Assembly (NCBI RefSeq): GCF_019320115.1
Contig: NC_089584.1
Coordinates: 59,206,852-59,270,851 of the forward strand
DNA length: 64,000 nt
Reading direction: 5' to 3'
DNA from: Miscanthus floridulus
Taxonomy: Eukaryota > Streptophyta > Magnoliopsida > Poales > Poaceae
Shown: piece after piece, positions 7,571 through 47,019 of the stretch
Numbering within the stretch: position 1 is the first letter of the stretch
How the letters are laid out: each line of letters starts with the position of its first letter
The notes under the pieces: generated by a model
Database searches by the model: none
What the model was told of the DNA's origin: nothing
Seen by the model: only the letters and a program-made list of their open reading frames with translations
Program-made: the position numbers and the translations under genes

Positions 7571-9232
7571 TGTCACGACCCGATCTTGACACCCTTGTGA
7601 GCATCAACATCATGAGCATCATTGCAATTGTAATAAAAAACTATAAACCAAACTGTAATTCTTTCTATATTAAAACTGCTCACTGTTGAATTGACGGACG
7701 GTCCATTAGCAGCCCGAACCATCCGCCCATTCATCTGCACGACCTGACAGAGTCTAGACCCTATCAGTCAGTTCACCGACACCACCGGACAATCTGCCGC
7801 CACAACGGAGCGTCCGATAGAGTCAGCCTATGAAGAGTTGTGAAGTGTCACTTCGAGATATCACTTGGTCCCACTTGACAGCCCACCTGTCCAGCTCGTG
7901 GAATGGTTAAGGCAGAGCACCCACCAACTCACTCATTCACTCTCTCCCTCTCTCTCTAGTTCATCTCTCTCTACACTCTCTCACACTCAAGCAAAAGAGG
8001 AGAAGGAAAGGAGATGGGATTGAAGCAAGGATACAGCAAGAGATGGCCATGGAGACCACCTAAAAGCCTTCAACCACAAGAGGTAGGGGTTAGAAGAGGG
8101 AAGAGCCCTCTCACCCTTGCCATAAGGAGCTAGGAGGTGGAGGAGGAAGCAAGCAGAAGGAGATTTTGAGTTATCAAGAGGGAGAGATCTAGCTGCTCCA
8201 TCTTCTTGAAGAGCTTTGCATCTTGTCATTGCAACCCTTGGTAAGGATCTAACCAAGCCAAACCTAGGATTTCACCTTTTAGGAGCCACAACCAAGGAAA
8301 TGTCAATTTGTGGCCTAGGTTTAGTTTGCACCCAAAGTATCTAGGACCAACTAGCTAGATATGCTCCATAGAACCCTAGTAACCTACCCTAGAGATGGTT
8401 TGCACTTGCAAGTGCCACAGATGAAGATTTGGATTTCGAGTTGCTAAGAAGTGTTCACTGTCAGTAATGACAGAGGGTCCGATATCACTAGCAGGATGTC
8501 TATCAGTATTGAGTAGCTGTCTGTTCACTTACATAGCACACATTATAATTCACTAGAGTCTCCGCCACTACACCGGAGTGTCCGTCGAATTTTAAGTTAG
8601 AGACAGAGGAGTTCCAGAGAACCTAGTCCACAGCTTTTGGTACAGCGGAGCGTCTATCGATATTCTGAAGTGTCCGCTGAATTATAAAGCCTGAACCCGA
8701 GAGTACCTAGTTCACACTGGATGATCCATAACACACATGGAGTGTCCGATACAGCTTGAGCACTTAGCAGTTAGCAGAACCCTATAGACCTAATCTGACG
8801 GATGGTCCGATACCTCGATGGAGCGATCCGTTGAATTATAAATCGAACACAGAGACTCCCAAGAGTACTAACTTCATACTAGAGAGTCTGATCCTATATC
8901 GGAGAGTCTAATGATCCTAGAGTGCCAAATTCCCACTAAGTCCTAGAATCACCAGAGCATCCGACATCTACGCTGGACTATCCGAGAGTCATCAGTCAGT
9001 AGACCTTAGTGTACACCTGCACACTCACTCTTGTAACACTAAAGCTCAAACAACTAAATAACATTGCATGATATCCTGCAATTTGAAGTATTATACTTTA
9101 TGCAAATCGCTCATCAAGCATCATGCATATAGGTGACACGATCTCTGAAGATCCCATGCTTGAGGAGGAGCCTCAAGAGGAAGAAGCCGCTGAGCCTAGC
9201 AACGACGTTCAAGGCAGGCCCCTATGCATCCC
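7571..9232 (+). repeat. 5' LTR of gypsy A, left part
   Basis: This matches 32982-34607 of the 3' LTR nearly throughout, including the CT-rich tract (about 7930-7985) and a long block with repeated GAGTGTCCGAT-like units (about 8460-9000). It is cut at 9232 by copia A, whose TSD ATCCC is 9228-9232. Short reading frames on the minus strand near 7987-8256 recur in the other LTR and are not genes. Confidence 0.93.
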
Positions 9233-9864
9233 TGAAAGCATCTAGGCCCCCAGTTGGGTTTCGGTGATTAATGACAATACGTGATTACTGTGACTAACGT
9301 GTGTTTTGCAGAGGTAATTAAGTTAGGTCACGGTAATGGAGATCGATTGGGCAATCATGGTGGTCATGCCCCTACGATGGAAATCGTTTCGGTTTTCAAA
9401 GGATGGACGTCAAGGTTAAGGATGGACTAGTTCTAAGTATCGTTTGGTGTTGAATAGACACTTAGAGTAGTTTAGGACTTTGTTTTTCCTTTGGCCGTAC
9501 TATTAAGGGGGGTATGGACGGGTAGCTTGACCTAGGTGAGTCTAGTGAGTTAAGTGTGGTGCACACTTGCTAAATCTAGCACTAGGTAGCTCCAAAATAG
9601 CCCTTAGATCCATTGGAGCAAACTTCATTCATGTATGATCGAAAGTTGGAAGTGAATGGAGGGTCAAATGCTGACCGGACGCTGACTTCGGTATGACCGG
9701 ACGCTGGCGCAGAGTCCAGTCAGTTCATTTGATCAAGGTGAAATCATCTGGAAGTGACCGGATGCTGAGAGGTGAAGTGACCAGACGCTGAGTCCTAGCG
9801 TCCGGTCAACTACAGTAAGGTTCTAGAGAGGGAGAATCACAACAGGATGCGTCCGGTCAGTGTT

Positions 9865-9893
9865 GACCGGACGCTGAGTCCCAGCGTCCGGTC
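9865..9893 (+). promoter_or_regulatory. Perfect 12 bp inverted repeat in copia A LTR
   Basis: GACCGGACGCTG at 9865-9876 and its exact reverse complement at 9882-9893 are separated by 5 bases. The structure lies about 150 bp upstream of the TATA box, within a cluster of single copies of either arm. The counterpart in the 3' LTR near 25027-25054 is imperfect. It could be a protein-binding site or hairpin; the role is unknown. Confidence 0.6.
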
Positions 9894-10040
9894 GACTCCA
9901 GTAAGGTTCCAGAGAGGGAAATTCACGACCGAACGCTGTCTAGCGTTCAGTCACCATTTGATCACTGGAATTCGAGTGAACTAACTAGAGCGTCCGGTCA
10001 CCCCACAGAGGCACATAACGGTTTATTTTTCAGCCATGCT

Positions 10041-10048
10041 TATAAATA
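10041..10048 (+). promoter_or_regulatory. TATA box of copia A 5' LTR
   Basis: TATAAATA is conserved in position in both LTRs (25216-25223 in the 3' copy), with upstream CGG-rich repeats. It probably directs genomic transcription. Confidence 0.65.
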
Positions 10049-10750
10049 CTTTTGCTCATTTCAACAACTGAGAAACACCTTTGTGAGTGCCAAGAAGAGC
10101 AAGGTCCTAGTGAGGTGATTGAGATTTGAGAATCCCAAAGAGTGCCCTCATTAGTGAGATCAAGAGTAGCAAAGTGTGCATCCACCCTTCTCATTAGGCT
10201 TGTCGTGGTCAAGTGAGAGTTCATGCTTGTTACTCTTGGTGATCGCCATCACCTAGATGGCTTGGTGTTGATTGGGAGCTTGGTGATCTTCCGACGGTGC
10301 TTGTGGATGACCCAACTCAAGTTGTGAGCGGTTGTGGGTGATTCACCGCAATGGATTATCAAAGAATCAACCCGTAGAGAGCACTTGATTCTTGCGCGTA
10401 TCAAGGGGGAGCTACACCCTTGTGCGGGTGCTCCAAGGAGGACTAGTGGGGAGTGGCGACTCTCCGATACCTTGGCAAAACATCACCACGTTCCTCCTTC
10501 TCTCTCTTGATTTTGAGCATTTACTTTGAGCATTTACTTTGAGCAATTCAATACTTGTCTTTACATTCATAGAATTGCCATGCTAGAGTAGGATTGGAAC
10601 TTAGGTTGCAAGATTTTTTGTGCGGTAGAACATTAGAAACATTTTCTAGGCACAAGGGGTTAATTGGGCTAACCGTAGGACTTAATTATTGCAAAGAATT
10701 TAGAATTAGCCCAATTCATCCCCCTCTTGGGCATCTTGATCCTTTCAATT

Positions 10751-10762
10751 TGTATCGGAGCC
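10751..10762 (+). other. Primer-binding site of copia A
   Basis: TGTATCGGAGCC starts three bases after the 5' LTR and resembles the TGGTATC-GGAGCC form found in SIRE-type elements (complement of initiator Met tRNA). Confidence 0.65.
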
Positions 10763-10800
10763 TCATGCTCATGTATTTAGGCTTAACCGCCTAGAGAAAG

Positions 10801-10904
10801 ATGTCTCACAGGGATGGACCTCCTCCTATCTTTGAGGGGGATAATTTTCCATATTGGAAAATTCGTATGGAGGCGTACTTAGAAGCTCTAGATGTTGGAA
10901 TACT
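10801..10904 (+). pseudogene. Gag of copia A, 5' segment
   Basis: The start ATG at 10801 opens MSHRDGPPPIFEGDNFPYWKI, the N-terminal pattern of copia Gag (FxGxNYxxWKxxM). The frame is interrupted after DVGIL by the solo LTR at 10905 and resumes at 14490 (RAASQSFPKP), with the duplicated ATACT across the joint. It would form the virus-like particle shell. Confidence 0.85.
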
Positions 10905-13900
10905 TGTGGTAGAACCTCCTAAATTATAGGACCCACATGCACTTGTCACTGTCCAACGACCTTTGACAACTATGCATATGTTCCTGGTAACTTAAGAAGT
11001 CTGTCGGGTGTCCTCGGGGAACCCCGAATCATCCATGATTTCCGAGCAGGATCACATTACAGAGTCATTGCAGTATTACAACATTTATTCAAATATATAC
11101 ATCAGAGTAAAATAGCGGAAGTCTTACGATAACTTAATTTACAAACTAGATGTTTCAAACCTTACAAACTAAGTTCGATAATTATTACAAACCATAGTAG
11201 TAGTGGAGTGGCATAATTAACATAAACATAACACACAAAATAAGCATCCTGCCCAAGGATCACACATTCACTTATCGTCATTGACAGGAACAACAGTCAT
11301 GCAGCAAGGTCCAAAACAGACCTGCTCATGAGGCTCACCTGCAACAAGGGTTAACGAACCCTGAGTACAAAAGTACTCAACAAGACTTAACCAAAATAAA
11401 AACTGAGAAGACTCAGGAATGTAGGCTCAGGGATTCAAGGTATGGATTTAGTAATAATCAAAGTTCTTTTTGCATAAAAGCATCTTTAATAAAATTCTTT
11501 ACTTCAACATATAAAACTTTATAAGAATCACATATGAATCTGCCATGATCCATAATGAGATCATGAACTTCATATCAAACTCTTTCTTAAACCTTACTCA
11601 AGTTTTAGTTATTAACTACGATGATGAACAGAGAGTTGAGTCTCCATAACCGAGAAGCAACGACGATTCGAACCGATTGTAAACCCAGCTGGGGATTCCA
11701 GACCACATGACATATGTAGGTTCCCGACTTACATATATCAACCTACTCTCGGATCTTCTAAAACAAGAACGGGTCCACACCACCCGAGAATATAGTACTC
11801 CACCAATCCAGCCCAAAGCCATGTGGGTACACGCTACTCTCACCATCTCTCGACTCCCAGTGCACGAGTAGCCATTCTCGTAATAGAATAGCCAAGTTAA
11901 GGCTTACCGTAGTATGTGGTTAGTACTACAAAGTCTCATCTCACACAGTTCAACAACGGATGGACCTTAATCGACACAGGCGGAAAGAAACCGCTCACAA
12001 GACCTTCATGTCTTGCGGCTCTCACACACCGAGTCCGTCCGGTCTAGATTTATTACTTCCCATGCTCATATCTCATGATAACATAAGTAGCCAAACATCC
12101 ATTTAAAACTCTCAGGTGACAGGGAATCACCCGGCTAAGCAGGACTAAGCATAACTAGTCATTTACGAATTAAAACTGGTAACAAGGTAGATGTGGAAAA
12201 ACAAGGTTGGTAATGCACCAATTAGGTTTCCACTTGACTCTTAATCACTTAATGCAGTATATAAAAGCAAAAGCGATAAAATTTGTAAAACACAAGGTAG
12301 GGTTAAATGCATCCGGGGCTTGCCTTCGTTGACGGAAAAGTTAGGTTCCTACGACGTCCCATAATTATCCGATCCGACCTCAACAGACGGATTAACCTCC
12401 TCCACAACTTGATTAACTACCACGTGTTCACCTTCGTTCACTACATGTAGTAACAATGCTATGTTTAACATGATGCGGGATACAAAACATGATGCTTGAT
12501 GATGGATGCAAATTTAACAATTCAAATACAACTTTCCTTCGCGGTACAGTTGCAAGTCAAATAAACTAAACCTTTTTCGTAACACATACATTAATTGCCA
12601 AGGATCATTAGCAACTAATGATCCAAGGTCATCACTCAATCCAAAATTTCAAACAAAACCTAAATCATTAAAGGTTACTATTTGCTTTTATGAATTAATT
12701 ATTTAATTCAAAATTATGAAATAAATCAACTTATTCTAATTGAGCTCAAAATTTTTGTAAATGTTCATCACATGATAACTAAGTGCAAAACAATTTTCAT
12801 AAGTTTTGGATAAAGAATTAAGCCTAGAAAAATCATGAAAACTCATTTATTAATTAATTGAGCAATTTTTATCACATTCAAAAAGTACTGAAAAACAACA
12901 TTTCATATTTTTATTAAATAATATACATCACAGAGAGGTCACACAAAAATTTTCATAATTTTTGGAACTCTAAATAATTCTACACAAAAATAACAATAAC
13001 TATTACTATTCATTCAAATCTGCAAAATAGAAAAATCCATTTTTAACGCTGAGTCACTGACAATGGACCCCACATGTCATCTTCAACCTTCGACGTTTGA
13101 CTACAGCGACGACGGCGCTGACCGACGCCTCCTCGCCGATGGTGAGACCAACAGCGATGGCGAAGATACCAACACGTTCACCATGACTAGGCGCATTGAT
13201 TTGTCGCACTACGGAGATTAATTGCGACACGATACAAGCCTGACGCCGGCCATGGCGGATGCGGTGGCTCGATGACACTATGCCAGCGATAGGAGCCTAG
13301 TAGCAATTAAATACATGGCATAGGAAGGTCTAGCAGCTCACCTCGAACACGATGGAGCAAAGAGCGAGGTCGGAGGATCAACGGAGATGTTGGTCGACGT
13401 CCACGATGATCACAGCGGTGAAAACAATGACGACGGCGGTGAACTGGTGACTGTGATGGACAAATTGACCAAGCAATGAGGTATTAAGCACCACGGCATC
13501 AAGACAAAGCTGTAGGTACACTGAGCAAGAGCCAAGACTCACCGGAGAGCGCTGGTCGTGGTGAAACAGGATCACCGGTGACTCTGCCGGCCGCAAGGAA
13601 GAAAGGCGCGCGCAGCGGGTTCCCGGCGGAATTAGGCGACAATGGCTGGAGGACTAGGTTCGCAAGGAGAATATGAAGCTAGGACAGGCTTGGCTGTGAC
13701 GGTGGAGCACTATGGCGACGGCAAACACACGACGGAGCAGCGGCGGTGGCGTCGGGAAAACAAAGGAAGAGGAAGGAAGAACGGTGACGACGTCTGAGCT
13801 TTATAGGACGGCGAGGAAGCAAGAGAAAGACACGTCGTGGCCTTCTCTACACCAGCGCGAAGCCATGGGCAGCCACAGGCACATCTAGAACCGAGCAGAA

Positions 13901-14484
13901 GGACGCCGGCGGTGGGCTTAAGCGGCGAGCACTGTTCCACTTATTTACAAAATTGCCATTTATTTTAAAAGCCAAATTACTCCCAAATTTGTATAACAAC
14001 TCAAAAATCTCCAAAAATAAAAGTTGCTCAAAATTCAAAGTTCTACAACTTTGCTTTTATAACCACCCCCTAGTTCGGTCTACATTTTGAAATGAAATTT
14101 TGAATTCAAATAGGGGACATTTAAAGAATTTTGCCTTTTCAAATTACTTCAAATTTTTCATAACAACTTTGAAAACTTCAAAAACAAACTTTGTATAACT
14201 TGACAAGCTCTACACTTTTGCTTTTAGGTTCAACCCCAAAATATGCTTAGATTTTGAAATGAGTTTTCAAGGTAGGATTTAAATACTGAAAATCAGGGTT
14301 TTCTTGAAAATTCAAATCCAAACCAAATTTTGAACTTGATTCAAACAATACAATTCAACACATACCACATAAAGGTAAACTTGTTTTAGTGTATGCATAT
14401 CAAAATTTTCGCTAAATACCAAATGCTTTGCAACACATATGATGACATGGCAGGTTTTAGTATTTAAACACCCGAGGTGTTACA
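10905..14484 (-). mobile_element. Solo LTR of a long-LTR gypsy element
   Basis: This 3580 bp insert starts TGTGGTAG and ends GGTGTTACA (TG...CA), and is flanked by ATACT at 10900-10904 and 14485-14489. It lacks protein-coding domains, a primer-binding site and a purine tract, so it is best read as a solo LTR left by LTR-LTR recombination. Minus orientation is inferred from the TGTAACACC start, like the gypsy B LTR (TGTAACAACC), and from a minus-strand TATAAA at 13800-13805. A GC-rich part (about 13050-13940) gives chance open frames. The AT-rich flanks near 12480-13020 and 13960-14360 hold nothing recognisable. Confidence 0.8.
13800..13805 (-). promoter_or_regulatory. Putative TATA box of the solo LTR
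   Basis: The minus strand reads CCTATAAAGCTC about 680 bp from the LTR start, comparable in relative position to the TATAAA of the gypsy B LTR. Confidence 0.45.
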
Positions 14485-14489
14485 ATACT

Positions 14490-16770
14490 TAGAGCCGCCT
14501 CACAAAGCTTCCCAAAACCTTGGGATGCTACACACCTACAAGGCGATGAGGTGAATTACGAGAAATGGAAAGCAAAGGCTCAAAACACCATCTTTAGAGG
14601 TCTTTGCAAAGATGTGTTCAATCGAGTGAGGAACCACAAAGACGCTCATGCACTATGGTCGGACGTTTGTGCGCTCCATGAGGGAACAAAGAGTGAGCGT
14701 GAGGAACACTATCATCTTGTCATGAAAAAGCTTAACTCTTTTGAGATGCTTCCTAAAGAATGTGCTAATGAGATGTACTCACATTTGAATATTCTTGTAG
14801 AGGAAGTTAATGGGCTTGGACTCACTCAAATGCAACCATCCGATGTTGTAAGAAAGATTTTGAGTGTCCTCCCCATTGACAAATATGGGCATATTGTGAC
14901 CGTGCTTCATCAAGATGGTCTCTCCACCGCTACACCGATAGAAATCTTAAGAAAGATCAATGCTCATGAGATATATATGCACATCACGCCATAAGATGGC
15001 TCATCCTCTACCAAGAAGAAAGACAAGGACTTAGCATTCAAAGCTAGCCAAGAGAAGGGCAAAGCAAGACTTGAGTATGAGAGCTCAAGTGATGATGAAG
15101 TTGATGATGCAAGTCTTGCTCTCATGGTGAGAAAAACTACCAAGATGCTAAAGAAGCTCAACAAGAGTGGCATCAAGTTCAATGGCAAGAAGAAGAAGTT
15201 CCTCACTAGCTCTAGAAGGAAGCCAATCTTCGAGATGGATTGCTATAATTGTGGAGAACTTGGTCATCTGGCACACCAATGCACCAAGCCCAAGAAAGAC
15301 AAGTTCAAGAATAAGTACAAGGGCAAGAAAGATGACTCAAGTAATGAAGAAGAAGATGAGAAGAAGAAAAACAAGCCATACAAGAAGAGAGATGGCAAAA
15401 AGGAGTTCCACAAGAAGAAGAGTGGAAAGGCATACATCATTGGTGATTGTCTCATGGAAATTGATTTATCTAGTGGCTCATCCGATGATGATAGTGACAA
15501 CAAGAAGGTGGCCGCCATTGTTATTGACTTTCATCATCTTCACCGCCACCACCTCCATCATCCTCTACGCACCTATGCCTTATGGCCAAGGGTGAACGCA
15601 AGGTATCAAATGATGATGATAGTAGTGGTGATGAACATGCTAGTAATGATGATAGCGATAGTGATGATGATGAATATGAATCACCTTCTTATGATGATCT
15701 TGCTAGATTGCTAAAACAATACACTAAGTTCATTATAAAGACTAGAGCTAAGAATGAAAAGCTAGAAGCTAAGAATGGTTAACTTTTAGCAAAATGTGAT
15801 ATAGCGGAAAAGGCTAGTGTTGAGCTTAGAGAAGCAAATGATGCTATATCATCCAAACTCAAGGTGCTCAAATCTTCTAAGAAATAGCTTAAAGATAAAC
15901 ATGATAAACTTAAGAGGACACATAACGAGCTCATCACTAGCCACAACAAGCTAAAAGAAGAATACACTACTCTTAAGATTAATCATGATAATCCTTTTAT
16001 TGCTCAAGAATTCTTATCCAATGAGCCACATGATGCTACTAATGATGTTGTTAAGATTGATATAGCTACATCATGTGATGATTTGACCATTGAGAGCATT
16101 GAGCAAAGTTCTAGTAGCAAGGGCAAGCAAGTGGTTGAGGCCGATGATTATGATGAGTTTGTCAAGCTCAAGAATGATAATGAAAAGCTCAAGAAAGATC
16201 TTGAAGAAATCAAAAGCCACAACACTATTGTGCTAGAAACTCTTGATCATGATGGTGATTTGATCCTTGAGAATGAGAAGCTCAAAGAAGAGAACAAGAA
16301 GCTCAAGGAAGAGAAAAACAATGATGCTCTCAAGGAAGAAAACAAGAAGCTCAAATTGGAGAAAGAGCATCTCAAGATTGGATTGAGCAAGTTCCCAAGA
16401 GGCAAGCATCTACAAAGTGAGCTACTTATGAACACTGTCATGAAGATGGATAGAAGTGGCATTGAGTATTTAGCAAACCAAGAGAAGAAGGCTCAAGCTC
16501 AACAACAACACAAGTCAAAGCCAAAGCCAAAGAGATGTTTTGAGTGTGGACAAGAAGGTCACTTTGCCCATGAGTGCCAAACTCCACCACCACAACCCTT
16601 GCCCAAGCATGCTAGACCTTTTTGCCTTCAATGCTCACTACATGCTTAGAAAGGATTCTAGTGGGAAAATAAAAGTCATGTTCTTAGGACCTTCCAACAA
16701 GAATAGGCCTAAGAAAATTTGGGTTGTAAAGTCACTTGTTGAGAAGGTGAAGGGCCCTCAACAAGTTTGA
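14490..16770 (+). pseudogene. Gag of copia A, main segment with two zinc knuckles
   Basis: The frame continues the 5' segment (NYEKWKAKAQNTIFRGL, NSFEMLPKE, LPIDKYGHIVTVLHQ), the copia Gag capsid region. A CCHC zinc knuckle lies at 15241-15282 (CYNCGELGHLAHQC) and a second at 16536-16577 (CFECGQEGHFAHEC), separated by a Lys/Glu/Asp-rich coiled coil (about 16090-16390). Breaks: TAA at 14992-14994, a frame change near 15520-15590, TAA near 15779 and TAG near 15886. Two knuckles flanking a long acidic coiled coil is a SIRE-type Gag layout. It packages RNA. Lysine-rich frames here should not be read as host proteins. Confidence 0.88.
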
Positions 16771-16799
16771 GTTCCTAAAGCTTGATCTCTTGTGTGTAG

Positions 16800-18005
16800 G
16801 TGAACTACAAGATCGGTGGAAGTCATTGGGTTATTGATAGTGGTTGCACACAACATATGACCGGTGATCCTTGTATGTTCACCTCACTAGATGAAGAAGT
16901 AGATGGACAAGAAAGAATCACATTTGGAGATAATTCAAAGGGCAAGGTTAAAGGATTGGGCAAAGTGGCAATATCAAATGATCATTCTATCTCAAATGTG
17001 CTACATGTTGCTTTATTGAGCTTCAACTTGCTATCCATTGGACAATTGTGTGATCTTGGCTTCCAATGCTTGTTCACCAATAAGGAAGTTGTTGTATCTA
17101 AGAAGGATGATGATCAAGTGATATTTAAAGGATTTAGATACAACAACCTATATCTAGTGGATTTCACCTCTGAAGATGCAAATTTAAAGACTTGTCTATT
17201 CACCAAAACAACACTTGGGTGGCTATGGCATAGAAGACTTGCTAATGTTGGGATGAGCTCACTCAAGAAGCTAATGAAGAATGATTTGATGAGAGGGTTG
17301 AAGGATGTGAAGTTTGAGAAGGACAAGCTTTGTAGTGCATGTCAAGCCGGCAAGCAAGTTGCAAATACTCATCCAACCAAAGCTTTCATGTCAACCACAA
17401 GAGTGCTAGAACTCCTTTACATGGACTTATTTGGACCAACAACATACAAGAGTTTGAGAGGAAATCTCTATTGTCTTGTGATTGTTGATGACTATTCAAG
17501 ATACACATGGGTATTCTTCCTTCATGACAAATCCAAAGTTGCATCTTGCTTCAAGAAGTTTGCCAAGAGAGCACAAAATGAATTTGAAGTGAAGCTCAAG
17601 AAGATTAGAAGTGACAATGGGAAGGAATTTGACAACACAAACATTGAAGCCTATTGTGATGAAGTTAGGATCAAGCATGAGGTCTCCAGAACATATACTC
17701 CTCAACAAAATGGTGTAGTTGAGAGAAAAAACCGGACATTGATCACTATTGCAAGAACAATGCTAGATGAGTACAACACCCCCAAAGCTCTATGGGCGAA
17801 AGCTATCAGCACCGCATGCTATGCATCCAACCGCCTATTCCTTCAAAAGTTCCTTGGCAAGACACCTTATGAGTTGCTCAATGGGAAGAAGCCGGACGTC
17901 TCCTTCTTTAGGGTGTTTGGTTGTAAATGCTACATCTACAAGAAGCGGCAACACCTAGGGAAGTTCCAAAGACATTGTGATATTGGTTTCCTTGTTGGTT
18001 ACTAA
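16800..18005 (+). pseudogene. Protease and integrase of copia A
   Basis: In order: the retropepsin motif VIDSGCTQHMTG (Asp codon 16836-16838); a GAG-pre-integrase zinc region LWHRRLAN...CSACQAGK, in which the second His of the HHCC pair is Asn; and the integrase core with YMDLFGP, RSDNGKEF and NGVVERKNRT supplying D, D and E. It then runs to CDIGFLVGY and a TAA at 18003-18005. Downstream the same frame continues (SKAYRVFNYATG), so the stop is a mutation within one polyprotein. The lost zinc ligand adds a second defect. Confidence 0.9.
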
Positions 18006-18347
18006 TCAAAGTCCAAAGCATATAGAGTATTTAATTATGCCACTGGCTTGGTTGAAGAAACATATGATGTGGAATTAGATGAATCTAATGGCTCCCAAGG
18101 AGCACATGAGAATCTTGATGATGTAGGTGATGAACCATTGAGGGAGGCTATGAAGAACATTCTGATTGGAGACATCAAGCCTAAAGATGATGAAGATGAT
18201 GTACAAGTGATTGATCCACCTTCTTCATCAAGTGTGCCACAAGATGGTGATAAAGATAGGAGAGTAGAAAATGAAGATACTCATGTCTCCCATGATCAAA
18301 TGGTGGTACAAGCACAAGATGTTGATGCTCCACAGCCTCCTCCTTAA
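18006..18347 (+). pseudogene. Integrase-RT linker of copia A
   Basis: An acidic, low-complexity linker of about 110 residues (VEETYDVELDESNGSQGAHEN onward) connects integrase to RT, as in SIRE-type Pol. It ends at TAA 18345-18347, after which RT continues in the same frame. Confidence 0.75.
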
Positions 18348-19199
18348 GTGGTCAATAGAAGAAACACACCTCTACTACAAGATCATCCACAAGATCTCAT
18401 CATAGGGAGTCCATTAAAGGGTGTAATGACTCGCTCACAAAAACTTGCTTCATTTATTGCTCATCACTCTTTTTTCTCTTGCTATGAGCCTACTAAGATA
18501 GAAGAAGCTCTTCATGATCTGGATTGTATAAATGCCATGCATGAAGAGTTGACCAACTTCACCCGTAATGAAGTTTGGACTCTTGAAGAGCGGCCAAAAG
18601 GTGCAAGAGTCATTGGAACAAAGTGGGTGTTCCGCAACAAGCAAGATGATCAAGGTGTAGTTGTGGGGAACAAGGCAAGACTAGTTGCAAAGGGGTTCTC
18701 TCAAGTTGAAGGTTTGGATTTTGGAGAGACCTTTGCACCGGTTGCAAGACTAGAAGCCATTCGTATCCTCCTTGCATATGCCTCACATCATGACATGAAA
18801 CTATATCAAATGGATGTGAAAAGTGCATTTTTAAATGGCTTTATTAATGAACTAGTCTATGTTGATCAACCTCCTGGGTTTGAAGACCCTAGATATCCTA
18901 ATCATGTTTATAGGTTGTCTAAGGCATTATATGGGCTTAAGCAAGCCCCAAGAGCTTGGTATGAGCGCCTTCGAGACTTCCTCATTGAGAAGGGCTTCAC
19001 CATTGGGAAGGTCGACACCATACTATTCACCAAGAAGCTTGATGGGCATATCTTCATTTGTCAAGTGTATGTTGATGATATCATCTTTGGATCATCAAAT
19101 GAAGATTCTTGCAAAGAGTTTGGTGAATTGATGTCAAAGGAGTTCGAGATGTCAATGATTGGTGAGCTTACATTCTTGGTTTTCAAGTCAAGCAAATGA
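18348..19199 (+). pseudogene. Reverse transcriptase of copia A
   Basis: The frame shows [55 protein letters not shown] (first catalytic Asp), [20 protein letters not shown] and [11 protein letters not shown] (catalytic YVDD), all diagnostic for copia RT. A frame change near 19185-19195 precedes the RNase H part. Catalytic residues are intact here, unlike in copia B. It would copy the genomic RNA to DNA inside the particle. Confidence 0.93.
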
Positions 19200-20021
19200 G
19201 AGAAGGGATTTTCATCTCTCAAGAGAACTATACAAATGATCTTCTCAAGAGATTCAAGATGGATGAATGTAAGCCAATCAAGACACCAATGCCAACTAAT
19301 GGACATCTTGACCTAGATGAGGGAGGTAACACGGTTGATCAAACTCTCTACCACTCTATGATTGGTAGCTTGTTATATTTAACCGCATCTAGGCCCGACA
19401 TCATGTTTAGTGTGTATGTGTGCTAGATTTCAAGCTAATCCTAAGGAAACCCATTTGATTGCCATAAAAAGAATCCTTAGGTATCTTAAGCACACACTAA
19501 GCATTGGCCTTTGGTATCCCAAAGGAGCTAGATTTGAATTAATTGGCTATTCCGATTCGTATTATGCCGGTTGCAAAGTTGATAGAAAAAGCATATCCGG
19601 AGGGTGCCATTTGCTTGGTAGATCACTTGTGCCTTGGTCCTCCAAGAAACAAAATAGTATGGCTTTGTCCACCGCTAAAGCAGAATACATTGCCACGGGT
19701 GCTTGTTGTGCACAAATTCTTTACATGAAACAAATTTTACTAGACTATGGTGTAGTTCTAGAAAAAGTACCTCTTTTGTGCGACAATGAAAGTGCGGTAA
19801 AACTTGCAAATAATCCGGTTCAATACTCTCACACCAAGCACATAGATATCCATCATCACTTTCTTAGAGATCATGTTGCAAAGAATGATATTTCACTAGA
19901 AGGTGTAAGGACCAAGGATCAATTGGCGGATATCTTCACTAAACCGCTAGATGAGGCGACTTTTTGTCGATTGCGGAATGAGCTCAATGTTCTTGATCTT
20001 AGTAACTTCACTAAAAAATAA
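19200..20021 (+). pseudogene. RT end and RNase H of copia A
   Basis: The RT thumb part (QENYTNDLLKRFKM, IGSLLYLTASRPDI) is followed, after a second frame change near 19410-19430, by RNase H: YSDSYYAGC, MALSTAKAEYIA with the catalytic Glu, LLCDNESAVKLANNP and HIDIHHHFLRD, ending near DIFTKPLDE and stop TAA. This is the C terminus of copia Pol. Confidence 0.92.
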
Positions 20022-20790
20022 CTTTTTGTTGTCCCTTGCATTGCATTGTAATATACAACATGTTTACTCTTTATGATAATGCATATAGGGCTTGTCTAAC
20101 ATGGTTAAGATAACCGCCGAAAAGCATATGAAGAAGCTTAACCTTGGATCAAACTTGACAAGCAACTAGATTTACTTTCAAGAATTGCATTGCATATGCA
20201 TGAATGTTGCTTTGTCGTTTATCTTCAATTGCCCTCTTATTGCCTATTTTCTTAAAAAGAATTATAGCCTAAGGCAAAATATTTTGAAATTTTTGAGGGT
20301 TTGAGAGATGTCACTCACATCAGTCCCAATTGGTGTTTATTTGGATCTTATTGGAGTTGGGACTTGATTGGGAATAGGCAGCACGAAGGACTTTGAAGAT
20401 TTGCTGGAAAAAGAGTGACTGGATGCTGCACTGGACTCTGGAGTCCAGTGTTTAGTCAATTCACAGGAGGTGTACTGCTGTCAAGAAGGAGTGACTGGAC
20501 GCTAAAACATTTTTTCCCAGCGTCCGGTCAGATGGCGATCCAGTGTTCGGTCAGATGGCGATCCAGTGTCTGGTCGATCGAAGATGATGAAGGCAGCTTG
20601 CACCGGACTCTGGCTGTGTCCGGTTGGAGTTCACCGGACGCGTCCGATCGCGATTCTAGGGGTTTTGGACCTCTCTGGAATTGACCGAATGCTAGGTGGC
20701 AGTGTCCGATCACTGCCACCGGAGCGTCCGGTCAGTAGAAAACGTGCGGGAATCAAACTCTTTTCTCCATTTCCTTTTCTACTCCATGGG
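20022..20790 (+). other. Spacer after Pol with CCGGACGC-type repeats
   Basis: There is no gene. From about 20410 to 20730 it repeats units related to those of the LTR (GTGACTGGACGCT, CAGCGTCCGGTCAG). It includes a near-perfect palindrome at 20429-20450 with 10 bp arms (CACTGGACTC and GAGTCCAGTG) around TG. The reading frames crossing it are not supported. Confidence 0.6.
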
Positions 20791-20796
20791 GGCCAC

Positions 20797-20803
20797 TATA
20801 AAT
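20797..20803 (+). promoter_or_regulatory. Candidate internal TATA box before the extra ORF
   Basis: TATAAAT is followed by a GC-rich, leader-like stretch and, 800 bp on, by the ATG at 21611. A donor-like CAG/GTAGCAAG lies at 21357-21366 and acceptor-like AGs at 21504-21505 and 21609-21610, so a spliced leader is possible. This is inference only. Confidence 0.4.
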
Positions 20804-20819
20804 CTCCGCGCGCGTTGAT

Positions 20820-21610
20820 CTAATTCGCCGTCTCTAGCTCCACCACGCCATCCTCTACAGCTCGCCGCGCACTACCACGCCCGCCGCCCTGCCTACGCCG
20901 TCGCCAGCACCTCTACTCTGCACGCCTCCCCACGTCAACGCCGTTGTGCCATGCCAACGCCGCCATGCTTCTCTGTGCTACCGGTGTCCGTGCCTGCCCA
21001 CAGCCATGCCACCGCTGCAGCGCCTCGAGTGCTCCCAGCACCATCGCCACACCACGCCCTGCCAGCGTAGCCACCGTGCCGCCATGCTCGCCATGCTCTC
21101 GTGCCTCTATGCCTCGCCCTGCCAGCACCACCACCGCGCCGTCTTCTCCCGCGTCGTCGCTCATGCCTCCCTTGCCCGACCATGCTACCGTGCCCTATGT
21201 CACCACGACCGTGCCTCTGCTCCCCGCATTTGAGCCGCAATGCTCACTGTCAGTGCCGCCAGCTTCATCCAGTGTCGAGTTGCGACATTCGAACCCTAAT
21301 TGCCATCCCGGTGGTTCCCCGATTCGTTCCTATTCTTGTCGTTTTGCCGGTTCATCAGGTAGCAAGCCCTCGTTTCCAATTTCGTTCCTAATTGCTTACT
21401 TCCTAGGATTTCATATCTTTAGATATATTGTATTTATTTGTATATCCTATCTATTCTATCGTGCAGCGAGTTGGTGCCTGTTGTGGTCCTATTTGCAATT
21501 GTCAGTCAACTTGAGGCCAAGCTCATGAGTACAGATCGAGGCCAAGCCTCGGAAGTGACAGTTGGTAGTTGATCTTCGTTAGTGGTAGTTGTTCTTTTTA
21601 GATCCATTAG
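20820..21610 (+). other. GC-rich leader-like region before the extra ORF
   Basis: From 20820 to about 21300 the sequence is a C-rich run of GCC/CACC triplets. It opens all frames by composition, then becomes AT-rich until the ATG. No protein family is recognised. Confidence 0.45.
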
Positions 21611-23970
21611 ATGGCTCATGTCAAGAATGTTGGAGGTGGTCCTGGTGATGAGGATCTAAGTCCCCTGCCTCGCCAGCCTATAGATACAAAAGGCAAGGCA
21701 ACGAAGAATCTTGCAACAAAGAAGCGGAAGTATCCAGATGCATATACAACTAGAGCAGCCGTAGTTGCAGCAGCAGCAGAGCGTGTAGAGGCAGGAGGTG
21801 CTAGGAGTGGAGTCTAGATCACAGATCAGCTCTCTCCATCTATGAGGGCTACACTAGAGCAGGTTGAGCGCCGTCATGGTGGTCTAGCTGGGACTGTCAT
21901 GGTTGCGGGATGGTGAGTTGTCTTGGATGAGAGTCAGCCTTAGGGGGAGTCACAGCAAGAGCCATAGCCAGCAGAGCAGACTCAAGAGGGAGAGTAGGCC
22001 GAGGAGACAGAGCAGGCACCTCAGCCACAGCTTCATCGCTCTAGTCATACCCGTGCTCCAGTCACTCTGAGGTCAGAGACACGGCGAAGGGGTTCACGTC
22101 CACCGCCTAGACCACAGGGTCCGCCTCCAGTGACCCACTTGGATGTGAGGGCCACCATGGCCAAGCAGGTTCAATAGCTCAGATTTGTGGACTTTGAGCA
22201 GTGGTTTCCACCGAGGCGGGATGAGCATGCTTCAGAGGGTTTCTACACACCTCTATAGGAAGATTTTTATAATGCATATCTTAATAGTGGGGCAGTATTC
22301 AGATCTCAGAGGGTGTGTAACATTGAGACCATTGTAGCAACAGCTAGAGAGCATATTTGCCCCTACCTATCATATCTACCAGAGCTGACAGATTTACTTG
22401 GACGGACAGGCTCATATGTTCTATGTTGGGTCCATCAGTTCTATGCTTCACTCTGGATTGACCCACAGCACATATTTATACACTTTGCATTCAAAGACAG
22501 AGATTACAGGCTGATGAGCACTAGGGTCAGAGAGATTCTCAGGCTTCAAGAGGAGCCCATCTGGCTACATGAGGTTTGCTATGGATAGACAATGCCTCCC
22601 AGACACCCTCACGGCAGTCTTGTGCCCCCTATAGATCTAGTCCACCAGTGCTTCACAGAGCCTTTCGGCGAGGGATCGAGCAGGACACCCAGTGATCTCA
22701 CTCCTACTGCTTGAGTACTTGATGCTATTATGAGGAGGACACTGCTTTCGAGGATAGGGTATCGTGAGGGCTTGACTCACATACAACTATGGCTTCTAAA
22801 CTCTCTAATGCAGCAGACTATGTTTGATATTTGGGATCTCCTTCTATCAGAGATAGAGGATACTATTGCTGAGGGGTTCAGAGGTCACCATTAGTTGCCC
22901 TATGTTCACTGGATCACATTTCTTATTCATAGGCAGTTATAGTGAGGCGGCCTAAGATGCTAGCTGAGTATAGTGGTGCTACTATAGAGTTCCCTACATA
23001 CAACCTAACTCAGATGATCCACCATAGTACACTGAGTGCACCTAGCTAGCCACGCTGTCGTCTAGAGGTGCCAGAGACTACAGCCTAGCAGGATGATATT
23101 ATTAGGGGCATAGCAGCTATAGAGGAGGAGCAACTTAATGCCTAGTAGGAGGGGATGGTTGAGAGCGACCCCAGCGACAGCTCAGATGAGGACTACCATG
23201 AGATCCCTCAGATGCCTCCTAGACGACATGACCATGAGGCCGGTAGCTCTAGTTTAGCTCCATCTGCGCCGCAGACAGACCCTGCTCTACTTGCAATACT
23301 TGAGTGGATGAGGCAGGATCAGGCTTGCCAGGCTCAGGAGACCGCCGCTACTTTTGCATAGTTTCAGACTCGGCAGGATGAGTTTTAGCGGCAGCAGCAG
23401 GCCATGCGTCAGTAGCAGCTTCTCATGCAGCAACAGCTACTTGGGTTTATGCAGCATGTTGTGACAGCTATTAGGGTTCCACCGCCACAGCCTTCACCCT
23501 AGCTTGGTCAGACTACCACCACTTCTATGACTCCAGCTTTACAGCCTAGTGGCCTTTGGAGTTAGGGACAACCTCCATCATAGTTTGCTTCACCTATAGA
23601 GCAGGTGTCCCAATGGTTTGCCTCGCCGGTGTTAGCCCTGTAGTTCACACCTCTTCAGACGGGCTTCACACCGACTCAAACTTCCTCGCTGATAGTGCTA
23701 GATACCTCAGTCTCCAGGAGTCTTGGAGCGACTTTTAGTGAGTTGACAGGACAGCCTACTCTACCATATTTGCATGTCCCAGGTCCTTCTATAGTTGCAC
23801 CTATTACCAGGACTACAGAGATGCTCCCTTCTTCTGTTGCATCATCAGAGCCGCCTGCTTCAGTGATACCTACACAGTCTATGATCGCTCCAGTCCCTGA
23901 TTCGACCTAGACCGCTTCAGCATCGCTTCTAGCTCCAAAGGGTTAGACAACTCAGAGCTCAAGGTCAGAT
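21611..23970 (+). pseudogene. Extra 3' ORF of copia A (env position), decayed
   Basis: The frame starts MAHVKNVGGGPGDEDL and can be followed for about 2.3 kb. It has a Lys/Ala-rich start, a conserved-looking central domain (FVDFEQWFPPRRDEHASEGF; SYVLCWVHQFYASLWIDP; YRLMSTRVREILRLQE), an acidic Ser/Asp part and a Gln-rich coiled tail (RQQQAMRQ, LLMQQQLL) followed by a Pro/Thr-rich end. One frame change lies near 22930-23040. I count about 22 in-frame TAG, about 3 TGA and no TAA. It occupies the place of the envelope-like ORF of SIRE elements, but I see no signal peptide or clear membrane segment. The function is unknown. Confidence 0.65.
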
Positions 23971-24462
23971 GATGATGGCACACAACTTGAGTTTTGGTGT
24001 TTGACGTTAAAGGGGGAGATGGATTGAGTATGCCAGTCTTAGGGGGAGCTTAGTTTATCTATTAGATTATCTATTACATTTGGAGTTTTATGTGTGATAC
24101 ACTATTATACATCCGTACACTATTATGCATTCGTGTGTTTACTTTTATGCATCAAACTATATTTATGTGATAGTGATATCTACGTGATCATGATATATGA
24201 CATGTGTGCTCTCTACTTTGAATTATTTATATGTCATATCACTTGTGCTATGCTCATTTGCTTTGCTTCCGCATTTTACTCTAATGCAAATGAGCTTTAT
24301 TACTTGTACTCATGCTTATTTCATATCTTTTGAGTACATTATGTTGGCTTGGGTCATATAAGCTTGCCTAACTCTTTTGTTCTTATTGTCTAAAGCTTAT
24401 ATGAACCAAGCATGTTAAAAATCTAAACTCTTTCACATACTCGAGGTGGTATTGTCATCAAT
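23971..24462 (+). other. 3' untranslated region of copia A
   Basis: This is AT-rich sequence without a gene, ending at the purine tract. The short open frame near 24094-24333 is AT-rich chance. Confidence 0.5.
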
Positions 24463-24480
24463 CACCAAAAAGGGGGAGAT
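24463..24480 (+). other. Polypurine tract of copia A
   Basis: CACCAAAAAGGGGGAGAT lies immediately before the 3' LTR and would prime plus-strand DNA synthesis. Confidence 0.85.
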
Positions 24481-25932
24481 TGAAAGAATCTAGGCCCCTA
24501 GTTGGGTTTCGGTGATTAATGACAATATATGATTACTGTGACTGACGTGTGTTTTGCAAAGGCAATTAAGTTAGGTCACAGTAATGGAGATTGATTGGGC
24601 AATCATGGTGGTCATGCCCCTACGATGGAAATCGTTTTGGTTTTCAAAGGATGGATGACAAGGTTAATGATGGACTAGTTCTAAGTGTCGTTTGGTGTTG
24701 AAGAGACACTTAGAGTAGTTTAGGACTTTGTTTTTCCTTTGGCTATACTATTAAGGGGGGTATGGATGGGTAGCTTGACCTAGGTAAGTCTAGTGAGTCA
24801 GGTGTGATGCACACTTGCTAAATCTAGCACTAGGTAGCTCTAAAATAGCCCTTAGATCCATTGGAGCAAACTTCATTCATGTATGATCGAAAGTTGGAAG
24901 TGAATGGAGGGTCAAATGCTGACTAGATGCTGGCTTCGGTGTGACTGGACGCTGGCGTAGAGTCCGGTCAGTTCATTTGATCAAGGTGAAATCATCTGGT
25001 AGTGACCGGATGCTGAGAGGTGAAGTGATCGAACGCTGAGTCCTAGCGTCCGGTCGACTCCAGTAAGGTTCTAGAGAGGGAAATTCATTGTCCAGCGTCC
25101 GATCACCATTTGATCACTGGAATTCAGGGTGAACTGGCTGGAGCGTCTGGTCAACGTGACCGGAGCGTTCGGTCACCCCGTAGAGGCATATAACGGTTTG
25201 TTTTTTAGCCATGCTTATAAATACTTCCTCCATTCATGTGTGGGGATACTTTTGCTCATTTCAACAGATGAGAAACACCTTTATGAGTGCCAAGAAGAGC
25301 AAGGTCCTAGTGAGGTGATTGAGATTTGAGAATCCCAAAGAGAGCCCTCATTAGTGAGATCAAGAGTAGCAAAGTGTGCATCCACCCTTCTCATTAGGCT
25401 TGTCGTGGTCAAGTGAGAGTTCGTGCTTGTTACTCTTGGTGATCGGCATCACCTAGATGGCTTGGTGGTGATTGGGAGCTTGGTGATCATCCGACAGTGC
25501 TTGTGGATGACCCAACTCAAGTTGTGAGCGGTTGTGGGTGATTCACCGTGATGGAGTTTCAAAGAATCAACCCGTAGAGAGCACTTGATCCTTGCGCGGA
25601 TCAAGGGGAGCTACACCCTTGCGCAGGTGCTCTATCGAGGACTAGTGGGGAGTGGCGACTCTCTGATACCTCGGCAAAACATCACCGCGTTCCTCCTTCT
25701 CTCTCTTTACTTTGAGCATTTACTTTGAGCAATTCAATACTTGTCATTACATTCATAGATTGCCATGCTAGAGTAGGATTGGAACTTAGGTTGCAATACT
25801 TTTTGTGTGGTAGAACATTAGAAACACTTTCTAGGTACAAGGGGTTAATTGGGCTAACCGCAGGACTTAATTATTGCAAAGAATTTAGAATGAGCCCAAT
25901 TCACCTCCCTCTTGGGCATCTTGATCCTTTCA
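24481..25932 (+). repeat. 3' LTR of copia A
   Basis: This 1452 bp LTR begins TGAAAGAATC, ends CCTTTCA, and is followed by the TSD ATCCC at 25933-25937. It contains TATAAATA at 25216-25223. It is shorter than the 5' LTR through several small indels but keeps a 25 bp segment that the 5' LTR lacks. Confidence 0.94.
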
Positions 25933-25937
25933 ATCCC

Positions 25938-26837
25938 TATGCTTTTTAAATGTAGAATGAACTATGGTTATTTATTGCATCGCTATGTTACTAAATGACT
26001 AGTGAATAGGAAGGGATTCACCTATGCCAAGCCATAACCACATAATGCCACACCAAGCATCCCTTATGTACCAACCGGTCTTATGGTGATATCCCTTGTT
26101 TCAAGTGGGGTTAATTTGTACCCCTTTGCAGAGTTTACTTTTGAAAGCAATAAGTTCTAACTTCTAGATACGGACTAGAGTTGGGTTCAGAAATCTGGAC
26201 TCGTGGAAGATCGAGTTCCAATTGGCTAAAAGTTTACACCGATCACCTAAGCTACGCTCTGCTATTGCTACGTCATATATCATCTTTACTTTTGGTATAA
26301 ATGCTTTTATGCAAATGATACGCATTCCTTGCTACTACCCAAATTGAATAATCCTTGTTTATTAGATTGGGTAAGACCCGCAGAGTACATTTGAGTACTC
26401 ACCCTGTTGGATCTTAAGTTTTGTAGGTACCATAGCTCCCGTCCATGGATTCTTCTATGCTCCAGACCCTTCATCGGATCAGGAGTGGTGAATGATTCCG
26501 TGTTCCACTGATACATGGATGTGGCACACCCGTGTATCAGTTATCATGAAACTATGTTGTTTTGAAAGACTTCCGCTAGACTTTGATGTAGTTGATGTGA
26601 TCAGGTTATGAACTAAGTGTGTGAACCAAAGCTTGTAAACCTTAATGCTTTGAACTATGATGTAACTTAAGCATGGTTGTGATGTATTCTTTCTCTTGAA
26701 CTGGTCCTAGATGAGGCTGGCCCGAGTACATCTAATGGGGGTGTACTAGGGTGACCTGTTAAGGGATGTGTCCAACTTAATAATCTCTGGTGGATTATCA
26801 TCTTGGGTACTCACTTTAGAGGGCGTAGATCCTGACA
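25938..26837 (+). repeat. 5' LTR of gypsy A, right part
   Basis: It resumes at TATGCTTTTTAAATG, matching 34608 onward in the 3' LTR, and ends ATCCTGACA. A 457 bp segment present in the 3' LTR (34728-35184) is missing at 26061. A 172 bp segment near 26462-26633 is kept here but lost from the 3' LTR. Confidence 0.92.
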
Positions 26838-46681: not shown

Positions 46682-46781
46682 NNNNNNNNNNNNNNNNNNN
46701 NNNNNNNNNNNNNNNNNNNNNNNNNNNNNNNNNNNNNNNNNNNNNNNNNNNNNNNNNNNNNNNNNNNNNNNNNNNNNNNNN
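46682..46781. other. Assembly gap (100 N)
   Basis: Exactly 100 unknown bases, a conventional placeholder, so the true size is unknown. Frames crossing it are not meaningful. Confidence 0.98.
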
Positions 46782-47019
46782 TGATAGGGCAGAGGATTCG
46801 CTAGGGTTGAGGCTTTGGCGATGGCGGCATCGGCTGTTAAGATTTGCTCGATAAAGAAGGGGAAAGCAAACGGGCTGAGTGAGTTGGAAAAGATACTATT
46901 GGGATATTATATAAGACTCGAACCAGGAAGTCAGGAGTCATGTGTATATCTCAGAACAAAAAGGTTGCGACATGGTAAATAGATAAATAGGAATTTTGAA
47001 ATAAAATCATTTTTATCCC
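46782..47019 (+). other. 3' non-coding part of a Tat-like gypsy element
   Basis: No coding domain is seen. Its position before a purine tract and LTR implies the end of the internal region of that element; its start is lost in the gap. Confidence 0.45.

What the first reader, a model, noticed from the sequence alone, without database searches (positions are those of the whole stretch)
21611..23970. Extra ORF of copia A is killed almost only by TAG codons
Following the frame by eye I count about 22 in-frame TAG, about 3 TGA and no TAA in 2.3 kb. Most TAGs sit in Gln-rich context (for example between CAG codons near 23360-23420), so CAG to TAG is the likely change. CAG is a CHG site, and plant CHG methylation is maintained by CMT3-type enzymes; deaminated methylcytosine becomes T. 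Random decay should give all three stops. The sequence therefore seems to record long-term CHG methylation of a once functional protein.
Basis: partly seen in the sequence, partly recalled or inferred. Interest (0 to 1): 0.75.

Follow-up and report, generated by a model that had tools for sequence, protein, structure and literature searches.

The report
Retrotransposon gene decaying at CAG sites
A dead gene inside a grass retrotransposon is broken almost only by TAG stops because its many CAG codons change C to T far faster than most other sites, as expected of methylated DNA, and the C of CAG changes much more often than the C of the matching CTG on the other strand.

Summary
Along its real path (one frame to about 22930, another from about 22951) the extra ORF has 21 TAG, 2 internal TGA and no TAA. 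In 38 other genomic copies, the 21 TAG columns carry CAG or TAG in 656 of 739 cells. C-to-T change per site is 21.5% in CAG, 17.8% in CG, 8.4% in CCG, 4.9% in CTG and 1.3-3.2% in CHH classes, with CAG and CTG equal on both strands. The CHG reading is supported, with corrections: CG is about as hot; codon supply alone predicts most of the TAG excess (p = 0.04 for this copy); and the C of CAG mutates 4-5 times more often than the C of CTG in the same duplex, which symmetric CHG methylation does not predict. A gypsy family shows a weaker, uneven bias. Third-position bias of shared changes shows the ORF was once under selection. Gag-pol of the same element is almost free of CAG/CTG, so it lacks this weakness. 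Methylation itself was not measured. A known kind of decay, with an unexpected asymmetry and an unexplained CWG-poor gag-pol.

The parts
9228..9232 (.). target-site duplication ATCCC, left copy
   Evidence: sequence printed; repeated at 25933-25937
9233..10747 (+). 5' LTR of copia A
   Evidence: 86/1406 substitutions against the 3' LTR
14461..16766 (+). gag region of copia A, broken; CAG 0 and CTG 1 in 14461-15711 where about 26 and 24 are expected
16800..20021 (+). pol of copia A (integrase and reverse transcriptase matched; RNase H not tested); CAG 4 and CTG 5 where about 58 and 57 are expected
   Evidence: Pfam rve and RVT_2
21611..22930 (+). extra ORF, first part (frame of 21611)
22951..24027 (+). 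extra ORF, second part (frame of 21613), Gln-rich, ends at TGA 24025
24011..24018 (+). Sirevirus polypurine octamer AGGGGGAG
   Evidence: motif from PMC2829016
24041..24048 (+). Sirevirus polypurine octamer AGGGGGAG
24471..24478 (+). terminal polypurine octamer AGGGGGAG, starting 10 bp before the 3' LTR
24481..25932 (+). 3' LTR of copia A
25933..25937 (.). target-site duplication ATCCC, right copy
7571..9232 (+). outer gypsy 5' LTR, part left of the copia A insertion
   Evidence: matches 32982-34604
25938..26837 (+). outer gypsy 5' LTR, part right of the copia A insertion (with gaps in the match)
   Evidence: matches pieces of 34592-35790

Best explanation
The ORF is the accessory gene, in the envelope position, of a Sirevirus-type copia element. 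It coded for a protein under purifying selection while its source lineage was active (shown by codon-position bias). After insertion, cytosines in CG and CHG contexts changed to T at rates several times those of CHH (shown). The likely chemistry is spontaneous deamination of 5-methylcytosine kept at CG by MET1-type and at CHG by CMT3/ZMET2-type enzymes (inferred from context; enzymes from established knowledge). Because the ORF is full of CAG codons, and because the C of CAG is the hottest site class, the gene dies by TAG. The C of CTG on the opposite strand of the same site mutates 4-5 times less, so deamination or mismatch repair must treat mC-A and mC-T differently, or the two strands are unequally methylated (inferred; not resolved).
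For: C>T per site (39 triples of copies): CAG 576/2684 (0.214 on the + strand, 0.216 on the -), CTG 133/2693 (0.050, 0.049), CCG 46/550, CG 321/1804, CAH 160/5067, CCH 151/5976, CTH 86/6377. Little changed with other outgroups, random partners, 13 disjoint triples or another aligner setting. Same duplex: CAG to TAG 555 against CAA 116; CTG to CTA 94 against TTG 19. Other data: pol copies CAG 21/145, CTG 4/113; gypsy copies CAG 42/142, CTG 17/157, CG 53/267, CTH 77/2187; LTR pairs of the window CAG 27/66, CTG 13/52 (sums). Segmental duplicate sharing both insertion junctions: discordant CAG 58/138, CTG 15/95, CG 38/83, CAH 5/194, CTH 3/261 in the ORF. Once functional: transversions shared by 4 or more copies fall 25/9/62 on codon positions 1/2/3, singletons 122/109/128 (Fisher p = 4e-7). 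CCG below CAG agrees with published methylation (PMC5221884 passages).
Against: No methylation data for this genome. In the PMC5221884 passages I saw, CAG and CTG methylation are grouped together with no difference mentioned, so methylation alone does not predict the CAG/CTG difference. In gypsy copies the bias is uneven: CTG is 13/69 on the + strand and 4/88 on the -, against CAG 20/81 and 22/61, and CAG exceeds CTG in 11 of 18 copies. In pol it does so in 12 of 30 copies, with few sites per copy. The LTR-pair difference alone is not significant (p = 0.08). In the duplicate's pol piece CAG is 0/8, CTG 1/9 and CCG 0/22, and in its gypsy piece CAG 7/21, CTG 0/14. In pol copies CTA does not lead the CTH class as it does in the ORF. 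The 40 scored copies are the best matches to this copy out of 4712 candidates, not a random sample.
Confidence: 0.87

Rival explanations
1. Codon supply only: cytosines decay at one rate in all contexts, and TAG dominates simply because Gln is written CAG here.
For: CAG+TAG 65 against CAA 11, CGA+TGA 4, TGG 12; the window tally alone is only p = 0.04 from this null.
Against: Rates differ several-fold by context on both strands and in LTRs; CAA codons are lost at 15/192 against CAG 724/2424.
Confidence: 0.04
2. The TAGs are old and shared: the ORF was already broken in the source element, and its stops were copied by transposition.
For: At 3 of 21 columns TAG is commoner than CAG among the other copies.
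Against: TAG share in other copies is nearly the same at window-TAG columns (175/571) and window-CAG columns (364/1300); the segmental duplicate, which shares the insertion, has CAG at 10 of 18 comparable window-TAG columns (TAG at 7, TAA at 1) and TAG at 14 of 40 window-CAG columns. CAG discordance between the two LTRs, 9/19, is high enough to give most TAGs after insertion. Shared transversions sit mostly at third positions.
Confidence: 0.06
3. Enzymatic editing of single-stranded DNA or RNA (APOBEC-like, or during reverse transcription) made the changes.
For: C>T excess and strong sequence context.
Against: Such editing is expected to be strand-biased; here CAG rates are 0.214 and 0.216 on the two strands, and changes continue after a chromosomal duplication.
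Confidence: 0.02
4. TAG is read as an amino acid or suppressed in this ORF (a title in the reference list of PMC2829016, reports stop-codon suppression for the soybean element SIRE1), so the ORF is alive.
For: Almost all stops are TAG and sit at CAG positions.
Against: TAG positions vary from copy to copy, singleton transversions show no codon-position bias, the frame is broken, and the same C>T happens in LTRs and on the other strand.
Confidence: 0.01

Closest known systems
Methylation-driven C-to-T decay of silenced plant transposons at CG and CHG sites
   Same: C>T excess at CG and CHG; PMC5221884 (passages read) already notes that deamination of mCAG or mCTG gives CTA and CAA sites.
   Different: Here the CHG effect is uneven: CAG far above CTG and about as hot as CG; and the outcome, TAG-only death of a CAG-rich gene, is counted codon by codon.
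Sirevirus genus of Ty1/copia elements, some with an envelope-like gene (PMC2829016, passages and section 6)
   Same: Three AGGGGGAG octamers at the end of or after the ORF, the last starting 10 bp before the 3' LTR; LTRs of 1515 and 1452 bp; long linker; an extra ORF after pol.
   Different: The three window pieces of the extra ORF sent to Pfam gave no hit beyond E = 1, a relative's open piece gives only a below-cutoff match to PF20167 Transposase_32; an envelope function was not shown.
Repeat-induced point mutation in fungi (recalled)
   Same: Repeat-associated C>T that writes stop codons.
   Different: Context CAG/CG on both strands, gradual and continuing after a duplication, in a plant.

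Membership tests
CHG-methylation decay | C>T higher in CHG than CHH, on both strands | tested here: met
   12.7% against 2.3%; CAG 0.214/0.216 by strand
CHG-methylation decay | TAG codons derive from CAG | tested here: met
   451 CAG, 205 TAG, 41 CAA, 3 TGG of 739 cells at 21 columns; 20 of 21 columns clear
CHG-methylation decay | both cytosines of a CAG/CTG site decay alike, as expected of symmetric methylation | tested here: not met
   CAG side 4-5 times the CTG side in the ORF, weaker in gypsy; so 'symmetric CHG decay' is too simple
CHG-methylation decay | sites are methylated in the germline | not testable with these tools
   no methylome held
Sirevirus (Ty1/copia) | RVT_2-type reverse transcriptase after integrase | tested here: met
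Sirevirus (Ty1/copia) | multiple AGGGGGAG octamers near the 3' LTR, last one starting 10 bp upstream | tested here: met
   24011, 24041, 24471; LTR starts 24481; one further octamer lies inside the ORF at 21942 and one in the 5' LTR at 10404
Sirevirus (Ty1/copia) | repeated motifs in the LTR and inverted repeat flanking the terminal octamer | not tested
   -
Envelope-like protein | signal or transmembrane segments and coiled coil (recalled) | not tested
   the ORF is called 'envelope position' only by place
PF20167 Transposase_32 (putative plant transposon protein) | profile match over the curated cut-off | tested here: not met
   29.9 bits against cut-off 45 for a relative's 279-aa open piece; many of the 120 listed database relatives carry PF20167

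The most novel reading that the evidence does not exclude
The gag-pol of this Sirevirus lineage has been purged of CAG and CTG (CWG) sites by selection to stay a poor substrate for the CMT3/KYP silencing loop, while the extra ORF has kept its CAGs and is therefore the part most quickly mutated to death. Evidence: in a 1008-codon open pol piece of a related copy no CWG spans a codon boundary where synonymous shuffling expects 39.6, and Gln is CAA 40: CAG 0 while Lys AAG 55 exceeds AAA 25. In that piece CG is less depleted (28 against 56.7). In the extra ORF and the outer gypsy, CG is depleted at boundaries but CWG is not or only mildly. Against: in copia B, CG is as depleted as CWG (8/60.9 and 6/36.7); the gypsy pol stretch also lacks CAG and CTG by a dinucleotide measure (14/49 and 20/42); and the eight other Ty1/copia pieces without a CWG deficit have no CG deficit either, so they are poor controls. 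A mutational purge of gag-pol, with the ORF acquired later, is not excluded.
Probability: 0.25. Interest if true: 0.8.

Novelty: new variant of a known kind. Interest (0 to 1): 0.58.

Why it matters
It turns a hand count of stops into a measured mutation spectrum. In these silent elements the C of CAG is lost about as fast as that of CG, and 4-5 times faster than the C of CTG in the same duplex. If general, this would matter for dating retrotransposons, for how T:G mismatches are repaired in plants, and for why some element genes hold almost no CAG or CTG.

Tried and rejected
Read-through or recoding of TAG was considered and rejected (variable positions, flat singleton codon positions, same changes in LTRs). 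Strand-biased editing was rejected (equal strand rates). A purely ancient, inherited set of stops was rejected (little excess sharing with the segmental duplicate or other copies). The stop tally alone was set aside as proof because codon supply explains most of it (p = 0.04). UV at pyrimidine pairs was considered: the CAG rate is not raised by a pyrimidine as such on the 5' side (A.CAG 0.285, C.CAG 0.281, G.CAG 0.181, T.CAG 0.188), so it is not the main cause.

Correction made on checking: the HSP70 control (L097) had been read on its antisense strand (ratio 0.92); one search repeats it on the coding strand (0.96) and repeats the others by their match strand with unchanged results. One search also shows that the eight Ty1/copia controls are four groups of related copies (four copies 97-99.9% alike, two 98.7% alike, two single) without CG depletion.

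Literature: ten full-text searches (two of them returned nothing). In their listings and in the passages I read I saw no report of a CAG-over-CTG mutation bias or of CWG-free Sirevirus gag-pol; the library holds only open-licence papers, so this is weak evidence of absence. Passages seen: PMC5221884, PMC9073684, PMC2829016 (section 6 in full), PMC5738225, PMC12844716, PMC9256654, PMC6482504, PMC8995044. The others were seen as listings with the start of the abstract only.

Rows dropped: L036 (identical to L035) and L001 (the window itself) from the ORF set; L041 (the window) from the pol set; one of 19 gypsy triples below 80% identity; codon cells with gaps; five of ten printed gag-pol stops (16647-16740), because another frame is open there.

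Full report
WHAT IS THERE. The window lies on contig C5 of a 2.68-Gb assembly with 2420 contigs; very large contigs numbered up to C19 suggest Miscanthus, which is a guess from recall. The element called copia A runs from 9233 to 25932, has LTRs at 9233-10747 and 24481-25932, and is flanked by ATCCC on both sides. It sits inside the 5' LTR of an outer gypsy element. The two copia A LTRs differ at 86 of 1406 aligned sites (6.1%); the outer LTR differs at 151 of 1617 in its first part (a second, gapped part gives 111/726 and is less sure). So the nested element is the younger, as it must be. Pieces of pol match integrase and RVT_2. Three AGGGGGAG octamers at the end of and after the ORF, the last starting 10 bp before the 3' LTR, are the Sirevirus signature described in PMC2829016 (section read).

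THE COUNT. In one frame from 21611 the stops are 21 TAG, 12 TGA and 1 TAA, but the second half of that frame is not the coding frame. Along the composite path of 798 codons there are 21 TAG, 2 internal TGA and no TAA, with 44 CAG, 11 CAA, 2 CGA and 12 TGG left. With one C-to-T or G-to-A rate for all contexts, at least 21 TAG among 23 has p = 0.04. So the tally by itself is weak evidence, and the statement that random decay should give all three stops needs the codon supply to be counted first.

ANCESTRAL CODONS. I fetched 39 further copies of the stretch from the same genome, the best scored of 4712 candidates; one is identical to another and was dropped, leaving 38. The longest open stretch in any of the 40 loci, on the strand of the match, is 279 codons. 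At the 21 TAG columns the 38 copies have 739 ungapped codons: 451 CAG, 205 TAG, 41 CAA, 4 TAA, 3 TGG and 35 others (summed). CAG is the commonest non-TAG codon at 20 of the 21 columns; at the other, 19 of 37 cells are codons outside the named ones. Over all ORF columns the copies hold 724 TAG, 45 TGA and 15 TAA, with 1700 CAG, 177 CAA and 122 CGA. Put as losses: CAG 724/2424, CGA 45/167, CAA 15/192. The first two are CHG and CG sites, the last is CHH.

RATES BY CONTEXT. For each copy A, its nearest copy B and the next copy O were compared; where B and O agree over five bases, a different base in A was counted as a change in A. In 39 triples (the window and 38 copies) C-to-T per site was: CAG 576/2684 (21.5%), CG 321/1804 (17.8%), CCG 46/550 (8.4%), CTG 133/2693 (4.9%), CAH 160/5067 (3.2%), CCH 151/5976 (2.5%), CTH 86/6377 (1.3%). 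Plus and minus strands agree for CAG (0.214, 0.216) and CTG (0.050, 0.049). Outgroup rank 5, 10 or 20, random partners, 13 disjoint triples and another aligner setting give CAG 0.215-0.244 and CTG 0.039-0.062. CAG exceeds CTG in 39 of 39 copies, and the ratio is 4.35 with bootstrap range 3.5-5.3. In pol copies the counts are 21/145 and 4/113, but sites are few and CAG exceeds CTG in only 12 of 30 copies. In gypsy copies they are 42/142 and 17/157, ratio 2.7 with bootstrap range 1.2-5.8, 11 of 18 copies, and the + strand CTG count (13/69) is much higher than the - strand one (4/88).

THE ASYMMETRY. Where B and O both read CAG, A reads TAG 555 times and CAA 116 times; where they read CTG, A reads CTA 94 times and TTG 19 times. 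TAG and CTA are the same event on opposite strands, so within one duplex the C of CAG mutates 4-5 times more than the C of CTG. CAG/CTG sites are symmetric, and the passages of PMC5221884 that I saw treat CAG and CTG methylation together, with CCG lower; ZMET2 prefers A or T over C or G at the next base in vitro (PMC9256654 passages). A repair or deamination difference between mC-A and mC-T is my preferred reading; unequal methylation is not excluded. CAH also exceeds CTH (2.3 times), so part of the effect is a general C-A against C-T difference.

A TIMED PAIR. Both junctions of the copia A insertion are found, in full, at only one other place among 40 scored hits each: C5 65.37-65.39 Mb, inverted. 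That locus is therefore a duplicate made after the insertion. Between the duplicates the extra ORF differs at 184/2385 sites (7.7%), pol at 93/3447 (2.7%) and an outer gypsy piece at 36/1499 (2.4%). In the ORF the discordant share is CAG 58/138, CG 38/83, CTG 15/95, CAH 5/194 and CTH 3/261; the pol and gypsy pieces have few CWG sites (CAG 0/8 and 7/21, CTG 1/9 and 0/14). Of 18 comparable window TAG columns the duplicate has CAG at 10, TAG at 7 and TAA at 1, and of 40 window CAG columns it has TAG at 14. So about half of the comparable stops differ since the duplication. TAG share in all 38 copies is hardly higher at window TAG columns (175/571) than at window CAG columns (364/1300).

ONCE FUNCTIONAL. 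Purine/pyrimidine differences shared by at least four copies, which I take as older than most insertions, fall 25, 9 and 62 on codon positions 1, 2 and 3; those seen in one copy fall 122, 109 and 128 (Fisher p = 4e-7). Pol gives 3, 2, 25 against 72, 54, 87. The ORF was under purifying selection in the active lineage. A 279-residue open piece of one relative has 183 database relatives at E up to 0.001, many of the 120 listed carrying PF20167; its own Pfam match is below the cut-off. The protein's function is not settled here.

WHY THIS ORF AND NOT GAG-POL. In gag-pol of the same copy CAG and CTG are nearly absent: 0 and 1 in 14461-15711 (expected 26 and 24) and 4 and 5 in pol (expected 58 and 57), against 98 and 23 in the extra ORF (expected 94 and 48). 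Lesser deficits are seen in the LTRs (ratios 0.39-0.51) and the gypsy pol stretch (CAG 14/49, CTG 20/42). In open gag-pol pieces Gln is CAA 61: CAG 1, while Lys is AAG 128: AAA 59; CWG spanning codon boundaries number 7 against 55.7 +- 5.5 in synonymous shuffles, copia B 6 against 36.7, the extra ORF 55 against 47.3, the gypsy 38 against 47.2. A 1008-codon open pol piece of a related copy has none against 39.6 and three shorter ones 0/15.1, 1/13.3 and 2/6.3, so this belongs to the source element and is not only decay. CG at codon boundaries is depleted in gag-pol (26/93.2), copia B (8/60.9), the ORF (11/27.2) and the gypsy (20/57.5), and 28/56.7 in the 1008-codon piece. Thus the ORF shares the CG loss but not the CWG loss. 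Eight other Ty1/copia pieces have CWG ratios 0.81-1.30, but also no CG loss (0.88-1.01), and one HSP70 gene has 0.96 and 0.96; they show that the deficit is not general and do not tell avoidance from decay. Gag-pol of the window copy has few stops: on the path I followed, 4 TAA and 1 TAG. A selective or historical difference between gag-pol and the ORF is needed. Avoidance of the CMT3 loop is the boldest reading; late acquisition of the ORF, after a mutational purge of gag-pol, is the alternative, and copia B, where CG and CWG are equally low, fits the latter as well.

VERDICT. The added results are the CAG/CTG asymmetry, the like heat of CG, the time-controlled duplicate, and the CWG-poor gag-pol. 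Methylation is inferred, not measured.

Noticed in passing
window 14461-20021 (+) and 52399-48416 (-): Gag-pol of both Sirevirus-like copia elements is almost free of CAG and CTG trinucleotides, also across codon boundaries, while CCG is not depleted.
   Followed up: partly
G000:C5 65.37-65.39 Mb against window 9233-31800: An inverted segmental duplication about 6 Mb away carries the same nested copia-in-gypsy insertion with both junctions; useful as a clock.
   Followed up: yes
G000:C5:136331023-136332162: An HSP70-like match in the same genome is listed with 7 internal TAG and no other stop, a possible second case of TAG-only death.
   Followed up: no
window 16474-16767: Between gag and pol another frame is open than the one before it, so the gag-pol junction is frame-shifted in this copy.
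   Followed up: no
window about 46700-46800: A run of unknown bases interrupts the sequence (X residues in two frames).
   Followed up: no
[quoted passage not shown] it may contain another insertion.
   Followed up: no
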